From IMG/VR virus record IMGVR_UViG_3300032084_000767, positions 1 through 31,342 of that record: a stretch of 31,342 nt of DNA; one strand, given 5' to 3'. Of the stretch, positions 11,175 to 13,242 are shown piece after piece. Position 1 is the first letter of the stretch; each line of letters starts with the position of its first letter. The stretch is from a virus. The position numbers were made by a program, and so were the translations under genes. The notes beneath the pieces are model-generated. The model worked only from the letters and a program-made list of their open reading frames with translations, made no database searches and was not told where the DNA came from.

Positions 11175-11429
11175 TCAGTCCCAGTTAAAATCCTCGGCCC
11201 ATACTGGGGTAGAGTCTCCTATGTAAGCTCCGAAAATATTATATTCAGCGTGTTTTATAGCTTCTTCTTCGCTCATACCGTTGCGCTCCTGGAGCAGCTT
11301 TATTACTTTGGTCCGGCTGTAAACTACCTGCCAGCTATTAGGATCAAAACCTATAATAGCTTCGTCCAGTCCGTCGGCAAAAAGTACCGGCTCCGTATCG
11401 CTGTAGTATTCTATAATCTTTTCCCGCAT
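11175..11429 (-). CDS. conserved phage protein of unknown function, 84 aa
   Basis: This acidic protein has the pattern DEAIIGFD...VVYS...L..RNGMSEEEAIKHAEYNIFGAYIGDSTPVW. That pattern recalls a widespread small phage family of unknown function with an EEA.....NI.GAYIG.STPV core. It lies about 15 nt beyond a strong terminator that follows the 116-aa gene, with no obvious promoter of its own, so it should depend on read-through. It is followed by an A/T-rich spacer. Confidence 0.75.
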   Translation of the reverse strand: MREKIIEYYSDTEPVLFADGLDEAIIGFDPNSWQVVYSRTKVIKLLQERNGMSEEEAIKHAEYNIFGAYIGDSTPVWAEDFNWD

Positions 11430-11823: not shown

Positions 11824-11853
11824 TGTAATAGTTTTTAGTTGTTGTTACTGGAG

Positions 11854-11861
11854 CAAATATA
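11854..11861 (-). promoter_or_regulatory. promoter -7 box for the early gene at 11823
   Basis: TATATTTG on the minus strand matches TAnnTTTG exactly. A -33 TTTG at the usual 19-21 nt is not seen (the nearest is 26 nt away). The leader CCAGTAACAACAACTA resembles that of the gene starting at 29049. Confidence 0.55.
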
Positions 11862-12101
11862 AGCGCTTTATTCGCTTACTTCCTAATCAAATGCAAAAAA
11901 ACTTTACTTTATTTTCATAGTGTAAGCTGTAACCCCTATAAACACTAGCTTTAAGGATATAAAAAAAATGTTGTTTACTGGCGCTCACGCGCTCCAGTCC
12001 CCCCTAAAAAAAAGCTCTAGCAAAAAAAAGTAAAAATAAGTTTATATACCTATTGCATAGTATTTAGAAATTGTGCTTTTTGTCAAACTACTAGAGTAGT
12101 A

Positions 12102-12121
12102 TTACTACTACGTAGTAGTAA
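12102..12121. repeat. perfect 20-bp palindrome
   Basis: TTACTACTACGTAGTAGTAA is a perfect inverted repeat without spacer. It lies next to further TACGTAG-containing repeats. It could be a dimeric protein binding site (operator or initiator box). Confidence 0.8.
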
Positions 12122-12139
12122 CTTAGTTAGATAAATACT

Positions 12140-12176
12140 ACGTAGCTACTTATAGCTAAGGCTAACGTAGCTACTT
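12140..12176. repeat. 12-bp direct repeats (iteron-like)
   Basis: ACGTAGCTACTT occurs at 12140-12151 and 12165-12176, a 25-bp period. Each copy is preceded by a CTA or TA and followed by TA. The shared CTACGTAG core links these to the nearby 20-bp palindrome. Two copies are few for a classic iteron array. Confidence 0.6.
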
Positions 12177-12258
12177 GTATTTATTCCTAAGTAGTTTAGT
12201 TAGTAGCTAAAAAAAGAAAATCAAGAAAAGAAAAAAAGAGATCTTGGAAAGGTGAACG

Positions 12259-12284
12259 TTCCCCGGCATTTATGCAACGGGGAA
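12259..12284. other. nested stem-loop
   Basis: TTCCCCG pairs with CGGGGAA around GCAT-TT-ATGC and AA, which makes a two-tier hairpin. On the minus strand, about 20 nt later, a long pyrimidine tract (CTCTTTTTTTCTTTTC) follows. Flanking GTGAAC copies (12252-12257, 12287-12292) form a short direct repeat. It could end a short RNA started at the minus -7 box near 12343, or be an origin hairpin. Confidence 0.5.
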
Positions 12285-12342
12285 AAGTGAACCGGTTAAA
12301 CAGCGTAGCTATAACCTTGGGGTATACTACATAGCTTAGAAT

Positions 12343-12350
12343 CAAATATA
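12343..12350 (-). promoter_or_regulatory. minus-strand -7 box with no gene downstream
   Basis: TATATTTG on the minus strand matches the Bacteroidota -7 box exactly. A TTTA lies 22 nt upstream as a weak -33. The next minus-strand start is 520 nt away, so a product would be a non-coding RNA or a long leader. Confidence 0.4.
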
Positions 12351-12411
12351 AAGCCTTCCTAATTATAATACATAAACTTTATTACTAAAGTGGACTACTT
12401 ATATATAAGCG

Positions 12412-12443
12412 TTTGTTTTAGTGTCTAATTTATAGTATTATTG
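12412..12443 (+). promoter_or_regulatory. promoter of the plus-strand gene
   Basis: TTTG (12412-12415) and TATTATTG (12436-12443) are 20 nt apart, one mismatch from TTTG / TAnnTTTG. Transcription would start near 12449-12451, about 95 nt before the ATG at 12545 and downstream of the GTG at 12446, so that GTG is unlikely to be used. Confidence 0.6.
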
Positions 12444-12451
12444 TAGTGTTG

Positions 12452-12541
12452 TTATTCGGTAGTGCAGAACCGAGTAATTTAAGAAAGTTTAAAAGCCTTG
12501 CGAGTAGAAGCTGCACCTTCGAAAGCTTGGCTTATTTTTTT
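12452..12541 (+). promoter_or_regulatory. structured leader: kissing-loop and attenuator candidate
   Basis: Hairpin 1 pairs TTATTCGGT (12452-12460) with ACCGAGTAA (12469-12477), 9 bp with one G-U, loop AGTGCAGA. Hairpin 2 pairs GAAG (12507-12510) with CTTC (12517-12520), loop CTGCAC. The loops contain perfectly complementary hexamers (GTGCAG and CTGCAC). Alternatively AAGCC (12493-12497) plus AAGCT (12508-12512) pair with AGCTT plus GGCTT (12524-12533), followed by ATTTTTTT, a terminator form that breaks hairpin 2. The ATG follows 3 nt after the T-run. This looks like a two-state RNA switch. Confidence 0.5.
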
Positions 12542-12544
12542 ATT

Positions 12545-12808
12545 ATGGAACCATTTAAACAATTTGGAACTATTCATACTCCGTTAGAGGAGTTTACAGT
12601 AATTCGAGAGGGTAGCACCTTTAACTACTTCCTGGCCTCTATGCAGGTCGTAGGATGCACTAGAGAGTACTTAGGCTTGTTTGTAAAAACAAAGGACAAA
12701 AGCAAAAGACTAGGAGTAAAGTATAACTTCATAGCTAACTTTAGGATAGGTCCTCACGGAATACCAAGAGAAGTAGCTATAGCTAGACTAAAAGCTAAAG
12801 CCGAGTAA
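12545..12808 (+). CDS. hypothetical 87-aa protein, only plus-strand gene
   Basis: The protein starts MEPFKQFGTIHTP and seems to be an alpha/beta fold with a basic middle (KTKDKSKRLGVKYNF) and a helical Ala/Lys-rich C-terminus. No known domain was recognised. The frame is open back to a GTG at 12446, but the inferred promoter and the structured leader favour ATG 12545. It runs against all other genes, has its own promoter, leader and terminator, and faces the late unit. Such isolated genes are often regulators or early takeover factors, which is inference. Its codon use resembles the rest of the phage. Confidence 0.75.
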   Translation: MEPFKQFGTIHTPLEEFTVIREGSTFNYFLASMQVVGCTREYLGLFVKTKDKSKRLGVKYNFIANFRIGPHGIPREVAIARLKAKAE

Positions 12809-12813
12809 AAGAG

Positions 12814-12836
12814 AAGCCCCTAACGGGGCTTTTTTT
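12814..12836. terminator. bidirectional terminator between convergent units
   Basis: AAGCCCC, loop TAAC, GGGGCTT form a 7-bp hairpin, followed on the plus strand by a run of Ts and on the minus strand by CTCTTTT. It ends both the plus-strand gene and the late minus-strand unit, whose last stop is at 12835. Confidence 0.85.
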
Positions 12837-13242
12837 ATGAGGTAGCTATTCTAACAAAAGCCACTAAAATAACTAGGCCTCCAACATAAACAAAAACCCA
12901 CCACCACCAAGGCACTTTAGTAACCGTCTTTACCTTTGTCGGTAGCTCTATAGTCTTCGTTACTATTACCGTATCTGCTTTGCATTGAGCCTCTACGCTT
13001 ATAGTGTCGTAAGATCTAATTACCCTAGCGCTTACGCGCTCAGTTTCAATTACTATCGTATCTACCGGTAAAGTAATAGTTACAGTATCTACCACCTCCT
13101 TAGGTACGTAGATAGTGTCCGTTATTACTACCTCCGTTTTAGCTGGCGTTAGTGCATTTCTTAGAGCTTCGCAGCTCGTTAAGGATAACATACCACCAAT
13201 AAAAAGAAAAGCCCTTAAACGGGCCGTTATTAATTTACGCAT
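12835..13242 (-). CDS. candidate unimolecular spanin (lipoprotein with C-terminal TM)
   Basis: This 135-residue protein has a basic N-terminus, a hydrophobic signal and a lipobox LTSC with Cys24. A beta-rich Thr/Val domain (residues 35-110) follows, then a C-terminal membrane segment at about 112-131 introduced by PWWWW. An outer-membrane lipoprotein joined to an inner-membrane anchor by a beta-rich periplasmic domain is the layout of u-spanins such as T1 gp11 (131 residues). It would fuse the inner and outer membranes in the last step of lysis of a Gram-negative host. It is the last gene of the late unit and lies close to the holin candidates, which supports the role. Confidence 0.75.
   Translation of the reverse strand: MRKLITARLRAFLFIGGMLSLTSCEALRNALTPAKTEVVITDTIYVPKEVVDTVTITLPVDTIVIETERVSARVIRSYDTISVEAQCKADTVIVTKTIELPTKVKTVTKVPWWWWVFVYVGGLVILVAFVRIATS

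What the first reader, a model, noticed from the sequence alone, without database searches (positions are those of the whole stretch)
12449..12545. Kissing-loop leader with alternative terminator before the lone plus-strand gene
The inferred transcript starts at a 9-bp hairpin with loop AGTGCAGA. A second hairpin has loop CTGCAC, and the loops share perfectly complementary hexamers. The second hairpin competes with a terminator form (AAGCC/AAGCT with AGCTT/GGCTT and ATTTTTTT) whose T-run ends 3 nt before the ATG. Two exclusive folds with a terminator abutting the start look like a cis-acting RNA switch. I know of no described phage element of this exact build.
Basis: partly seen in the sequence, partly recalled or inferred. 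Interest (0 to 1): 0.7.

Follow-up and report, generated by a model that had tools for sequence, protein, structure and literature searches.

The report
Kissing-loop attenuator leader in Bacteroidota phages
The stretch before this phage gene encodes a folded RNA, shared by many viruses of Bacteroidota bacteria, in which a hairpin at the RNA's start grips the tip of a transcription-stop hairpin just before the gene; it is probably a previously unnamed genetic switch.

Summary
A Bacteroidota-type promoter starts the RNA at hairpin 1. Its loop word GTGCAG is complementary to CTGCAC, the apical loop of an intrinsic-terminator hairpin whose U-run ends 3 nt before the ATG. The claimed competition between two folds is wrong: hairpin 2 is the tip of the terminator stem, separated from it by a GAGUA/GAAA (loop-E-like) internal loop; the alternative pairing is 5.5 kcal/mol worse and occurs in 2 of 77 relatives. 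About 80 distinct relatives were found in viral contigs, including cultured Croceibacter phage P2559S. With loops left free in the search, 51 of 55 have a complementary hairpin-1 loop word of 6 nt or more (2% for shuffled loops). All stems covary. The element precedes unrelated genes (HNH and GIY-YIG endonucleases, replication genes), usually 9-20 nt before the ATG. Cultured Flavobacterium and Cellulophaga phages have the same topology without the GAGUA loop. Near-identical phages can differ specifically in the kissing word, changed together on both sides. No Rfam family matches and no describing paper was found. Best reading: a mobile transcription-attenuator leader. Its function and trigger are inferred, not shown.

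The parts
12412..12415 (+). TTTG, candidate -33 promoter element, 20 nt before the -7 box
   Evidence: Read from the sequence; Bacteroidota consensus TTTG-N19/21-TAnnTTTG is from general knowledge.
12436..12443 (+). TATTATTG, candidate -7 box (TAnnTTTG with one mismatch); L004 has a perfect TATGTTTG at the aligned place
   Evidence: TAnnTTTG 6/6 sits just before hairpin 1 in 44 of 74 relatives against 2 of 220 control windows.
12451..12478 (+). Hairpin 1 at the inferred 5' end of the RNA (start about 12447-12450, inferred)
   Evidence: stem covaries in relatives.
12462..12467 (+). Kissing word 1, GTGCAG, in the loop of hairpin 1
   Evidence: Perfect complement of 12511-12516; covaries.
12479..12492 (+). 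A/U-rich linker, variable in relatives
12493..12533 (+). Intrinsic-terminator hairpin: lower stem 12493-12501/12525-12533, apical stem 12507-12510/12517-12520
   Evidence: double changes at all pairs across 21 relatives.
12502..12506 (+). GAGUA, 5' side of the loop-E-like internal loop
   Evidence: Invariant in type-A relatives, partly because searched for; a GAGUA-less type exists.
12521..12524 (+). GAAA, 3' side of the loop-E-like internal loop
   Evidence: As for GAGUA.
12511..12516 (+). Kissing word 2, CTGCAC, apical loop of the terminator hairpin
12535..12541 (+). U-run of the terminator, ends 3 nt before the ATG
   Evidence: a U-run follows the hairpin in the true hits, whose pattern did not ask for one.
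12545..12808 (+). 87-aa gene controlled by the leader; unknown function, confident beta-rich AlphaFold model with one C-terminal helix
   Evidence: no family or fold match.
12814..12836 (+). Terminator-like hairpin (GCCCC/GGGGC plus T7) after the gene
   Evidence: Read from the sequence.

Best explanation
12449-12541 encodes a member of a widespread, apparently undescribed class of phage leader RNA. Shown by sequence comparison: a Bacteroidota-type promoter places the RNA start at a 5'-terminal hairpin; a variable A/U-rich linker follows; then an intrinsic-terminator hairpin whose apical loop is complementary (6-8 bp, kissing) to the loop of hairpin 1; then a U-run and the ATG of an unrelated gene, usually 9-20 nt from the stem. 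Inferred: it is a transcription attenuator. Many RNAs stop at the U-run as a compact ~90-nt leader, and the kissing contact sets how fast or how firmly the terminator hairpin folds, and so what share of polymerases reads into the gene; in read-through mRNA the same hairpin, about 12 nt from the ATG, may also shield the start codon. Phages use it before replication or early operons, and homing-endonuclease genes carry their own copies. What relieves it (host factor, another leader RNA, growth state) is unknown.
For: Unconstrained loops are complementary in 51 of 55 elements against 2.2% for shuffled loops; stems covary at all 18 pairs; sixth loop pair Watson-Crick in 30 of 30 cores. Promoter box directly upstream in most relatives and ATG close behind. 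U-run kept where the pattern did not require it. Unrelated genes behind it, so the leader is a portable cis element. Same topology with other internal loops in cultured phages and in a promoter-anchored topology scan, 62 hits against 2 in reversed sequence. Usually one copy per phage record.
Against: No transcript, termination or reporter data. No conserved antiterminator fold, which classical attenuators have. The short, rather regular stem-to-ATG distance would also fit a translational element. The trigger is unknown. A search by pattern enriches for the internal loop and U-run, so their conservation is partly imposed.
Confidence: 0.6

Rival explanations
1. Self-recognition code: the leader, nascent and as a terminated ~90-nt RNA, also acts in trans through its loops, as plasmid copy-control RNAs do. 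Rising same-word leader RNA changes termination on other copies (dosage feedback, or exclusion of a same-word rival), and words diversify to escape cross-talk.
For: L182 and L239 are 96-100% identical in the flanks but differ at three word positions, matched on both sides; 36 of 82 pairs at least 93% identical downstream differ in word, apical-loop divergence 0.22 against 0.039; two copies in one genome carry different words (G018, G022).
Against: The pairs come from few lineages and are not independent; the linker differs too, so a neutral recombination tract explains L182/L239; different words in one genome are expected anyway from word frequencies; both loops are sequestered in cis in the finished RNA.
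Confidence: 0.15
2. Translation or stability element: the 5'-terminal hairpin and kissing fold protect the mRNA or position the ribosome, and the U-run serves initiation rather than termination.
For: Hairpin 1 at the very 5' end; stem-to-ATG distance mostly 9-20 nt, median 12.
Against: A GC-containing stem followed directly by a U-run is kept throughout, also in GAGUA-less relatives, and some ATGs lie 28-50 nt away.
Confidence: 0.14
3. Independent small RNA: the ~90-nt terminated RNA is the product, and the following gene is incidental.
For: Own promoter and terminator enclose a compact, covarying structure.
Against: A gene start follows closely in almost every case, with very different genes; no conserved unpaired sequence that could be a target site.
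Confidence: 0.08
4. One reading: hairpin 2 and the terminator are mutually exclusive folds.
For: The AAGCU/AGCUU pairing can be drawn in the window sequence.
Against: -8.2 against -13.7 kcal/mol, probability 0.0; possible in 2 of 77 relatives; the nested fold covaries.
Confidence: 0.02

Closest known systems
DUF805b RNA (Rfam RF02914, cis-regulatory; a copy lies in Flavobacterium phage morran9-1)
   Same: Cis-regulatory RNA found in a Bacteroidota phage; consensus contains GAGUAGG and CCGAAAA, which could form the same GAGUA/GAAA module (my reading of the consensus).
   Different: Strand order is permuted (GAAA side first), 35 nt long, no terminator hairpin and no hairpin-1 kissing in the model; the window element does not match it.
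TEG147 (Rfam RF03535, Staphylococcus aureus small RNA)
   Same: Terminator-like hairpin with GAGUAG/CGAAA internal loop.
   Different: 21 bits against a gathering score of 56.1; upstream hairpin not in the model; not found in control genomes.
Plasmid antisense attenuators and copy-control RNAs (pT181, pIP501, ColE1 type; from general knowledge)
   Same: Loop-loop pairing governs a terminator or primer, and loop changes create new specificities.
   Different: There the partners are two RNAs from opposite strands; here both loops lie on one RNA.
Kissing-loop riboswitches (purine, lysine; from general knowledge)
   Same: Two hairpins joined by loop-loop pairing, often with terminator read-out; the lysine type also has a loop-E-like motif.
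   Different: No conserved junction or ligand pocket: linker variable in sequence and length, unrelated downstream genes, no Rfam match.
HK022 put antitermination RNA (from general knowledge)
   Same: Phage-encoded, promoter-proximal, two hairpins, acts on RNA polymerase passage.
   Different: put has no U-run of its own and no known loop-loop pairing; similarity not tested here.

Membership tests
Transcription attenuator (leader with intrinsic terminator) | GC-containing hairpin plus U-run between promoter and first codon | tested here: met
Transcription attenuator (leader with intrinsic terminator) | Alternative antiterminator fold | tested here: not met
Transcription attenuator (leader with intrinsic terminator) | Regulated read-through in cells | not testable with these tools
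   Needs RNA end mapping and reporters.
Any family of Rfam 15 | Match at or above the family's gathering score over the element | tested here: not met
   No match over the element in window or relatives; only a separate DUF805b hit in L335.
TEG147 (RF03535) | Score at or above gathering score 56.1 | tested here: not met
   21 bits.
Metabolite riboswitch | Conserved unpaired ligand-binding core | tested here: not met
   Only the internal loop GAGUA/GAAA is conserved, and it is absent from related topologies.
Antisense-RNA attenuator (pT181/pIP501 type) | Separate antisense RNA from the opposite strand | not tested
   No search for an opposite-strand promoter inside the element was made.
The class defined here (5' hairpin kissing the terminator tip) | Complementary loops of hairpin 1 and terminator, U-run, gene close behind | tested here: met

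The most novel reading that the evidence does not exclude
A new class of phage regulatory RNA in which the kissing word is a self/non-self code: the terminated leader senses its own dosage, or that of a co-infecting same-word phage, in trans, so that phages and mobile endonuclease genes of Bacteroidota fall into compatibility groups as plasmids do, with words kept diverse by selection.
Probability: 0.15. Interest if true: 0.95.

Novelty: new variant of a known kind. Interest (0 to 1): 0.78.

Why it matters
It is a structured RNA class with compensatory change in a loop-loop contact, present in cultured and uncultured phages of a phylum whose phage gene control is little studied, and also carried by homing-endonuclease genes. 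It would offer an orthogonal control part for Bacteroidota, and it poses a testable question: why near-identical phages exchange matched loop words.

Tried and rejected
1. 2. A first exact pattern for both loops gave 31 stretches, about what I estimated for chance; apart from the L002/L108 contig I did not pursue them. Relatives came from synteny and then a looser pattern, from which three unrelated recurring sequences were set aside by eye. 3. Host chromosomes: only 3 of 41 genome-contig matches look real (Dysgonomonas and two Prevotellaceae). In 395 genomes of the class of the Dysgonomonas host, the pattern matched 7, of which only the Dysgonomonas contig looks like the element; the covariance search found the same one but scored only 10 candidates per genome. 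4. Blastn of the leader against annotated phages found nothing meaningful. 5. Function of the 87-aa protein: no family or fold match. 6. Treating the GAGUA type as the whole class: rejected after finding the same topology with other internal loops. 7. An unrestricted scan at every T-run is noisy (48 hits against 28 in reversed sequence), so only promoter-linked or clearly folded cases are used. 8. MAFFT misaligned hairpin 1 across spacing variants, so equally spaced sets were used. 9. An earlier loop-against-stem comparison was biased because pairs had been chosen for similar stems; it was replaced.

Full report
Check of the observation. Hairpin 1 is 12451-12478 (10 bp with two G-U pairs, loop AGUGCAGA). 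The terminator hairpin is 12493-12533, with lower stem AAGCC-UU-GC / GC-UU-GGCUU, internal loop GAGUA / GAAA, apical stem GAAG/CUUC and loop CUGCAC. The U-run is 12535-12541 and the ATG is at 12545. Loop words 12462-12467 and 12511-12516 are perfectly complementary. The 'second hairpin' is therefore the tip of the terminator, not its competitor.

Close relatives. The lone plus-strand gene has orthologues in L002, L004 and L009, later also L190 and L249. In L004 and L009 the hairpin-1 stem differs but still pairs (window TTCGGT/ACCGAG; L004 GTTAGTA/TACTAAC; L009 CCAGT/ACTGG), and the kissing word changes together (GTGCAG/CTGCAC in window and L009, ATGCAG/CTGCAT in L004). Between window and L002 a block of about 149 nt spanning the leader is unchanged while the region is about 94% identical.

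Wider family. A pattern fixing five bases of each loop and the internal loop found 66 stretches in viral contigs. After setting aside three unrelated recurring sequences by eye, 30 distinct cores remain, and in all 30 the sixth loop pair, left free by the pattern, is Watson-Crick (17 A/U, 7 G/C, 6 U/A); many of these come from a few phage families. Of 55 distinct elements from it, which were also required to have a pairing stem, 51 have a hairpin-1 loop with a perfect complement of 6 nt or more to the apical loop, against 2.2% with shuffled loops and 6% with loops swapped between elements. Words include GTAACGG, GTTACGG, GTTGCGG, GTCGTGG, TGGTGG, ATGCGG, GTATCCG and GTGCCA. On 21 equally spaced relatives the stems give 92.6% standard pairs (54.7% shuffled; 31-42% when slid), with double changes at all 18 pairs. 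The kissing helix has two registers, 6 bp with a 4-bp apical stem (as in the window) and 7 bp with a 3-bp stem, so a single-column count understates it.

Promoter and start codon. A perfect TAnnTTTG box lies just upstream of hairpin 1 in 44 of 74 relatives against 2 of 220 control windows, usually ending 3-5 nt before it; the window has TATTATTG at 12436-12443 with TTTG 20 nt upstream. From the stem to the first ATG the median is 12 nt, mostly 9-20. The RNA thus most likely begins with hairpin 1.

Beyond the GAGUA loop. In cultured phages the same topology occurs with other internal loops. Flavobacterium phage morran9-1 pairs GUGAGAAG with CUUCUCAC upstream of genes leading to a primase; Cellulophaga phage Nekkels_1 pairs AUUGGAA with UUCCAAU; Cellulophaga phage phi10:1 pairs GUACGAC with GUCGUAC. 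All three fold at z about -4.2 to -4.5. A topology-only scan behind promoter boxes in held loci gives 62 hits against 2 in reversed sequence; 15 lack GAGUA/GAAA, though a few of these (A/T-only words) look like chance, and they include a recurrent 'type B' (L180, L192, L199, L251). Croceibacter phage P2559S (JQ867099) carries a type-A copy at 33907-33999, and the annotated start of its gene 48 lies inside the element.

Genes behind it. Pfam finds NUMOD4-HNH and GIY-YIG endonucleases, KilA-N, HTH_36, DUF6291, BT4734-like and helicase proteins; many others are unknown (first 110 residues scanned). Most phage records carry one copy; G018 and G022 carry two with different words, and the two in G028 are the ends of one contig. 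Among 395 genomes of the Dysgonomonas host's class, only the Dysgonomonas contig, 25 kb long, carries it, so as far as sampled the element belongs to phages rather than chromosomes.

Word changes. L182 and L239 are about 96% identical upstream and 100% downstream, yet three positions of the word differ in both loops, keeping complementarity; the linker between also differs, so a short recombination tract is possible. Among pairs at least 93% identical downstream, 36 of 82 differ in word, and apical-loop divergence is 0.22 against 0.039 in the flank. These pairs come from few lineages and are not independent.

Mechanism. Shown by comparison: a conserved structured leader with promoter, kissing pair, terminator-like hairpin and gene. 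Inferred: attenuation of the downstream gene, modulated by the kissing contact, perhaps with a second, translational effect because the hairpin sits about 12 nt from the ATG. Not shown: whether kissing helps or hinders termination, what relieves it, and whether the terminated RNA acts in trans. A factor reading the loop sequence is unlikely because words vary freely; a factor reading the shape or the GAGUA/GAAA module, or the RNA alone, fits better. That module seems to recur, permuted, in Rfam's DUF805b RNA, also present in morran9-1; this is my reading of the consensus, not a test.

Novelty. No Rfam 15 family reaches threshold over the element; the best sub-threshold match by bits is TEG147, 21 against 56.1. 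Searches of the open-access library found no description. The paper I would most want to check (10.1093/nar/gkx699) is not held, and PMC8040213 lists thousands of candidates whose tables I did not read, so an unnamed earlier listing cannot be excluded. I file it as a new variant of a known kind (structured attenuator leaders) rather than categorically new, because the function is not demonstrated.

Noticed in passing
L335:4300-4334 (Flavobacterium phage morran9-1): DUF805b RNA (RF02914) above its gathering score, 52.1 bits, before another gene of the phage; its consensus has GAGUA and GAAA strands in permuted order.
   Followed up: partly
L180:430-525, L192, L199, L251: A second recurrent kissing-loop leader type without GAGUA/GAAA ('type B': ..CCTTT.AATGAAT[stem]GTGA....[stem]AGGATTT.AGAGG plus T-run) in contigs that also carry the type-A element.
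   Followed up: partly
L333:7033-7125 (P2559S 33907-33999): Annotated start of P2559S gene 48 (33955) lies inside the RNA element; the likely ATG is just behind the T-run.
   Followed up: yes
window 12835-13242 (-): Looks like a unimolecular spanin: lipobox-like LTSC near the N-terminus and a C-terminal transmembrane stretch; no family match.
   Followed up: no
window 11830-12400: Intergenic region with TACTACGTAGTA-type palindromes and GGTGAACGTTCCCCG..CGGGGAAAAGTGAACC; conserved in L002, the second part lost in L004 and L009. Possible origin or operator.
   Followed up: no
L350 minus strand, scan position 11326 (record G009): Possible further kissing terminator with a 10-nt complementary pair (CCCATCACTT); no gene directly behind it was identified.
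   Followed up: no
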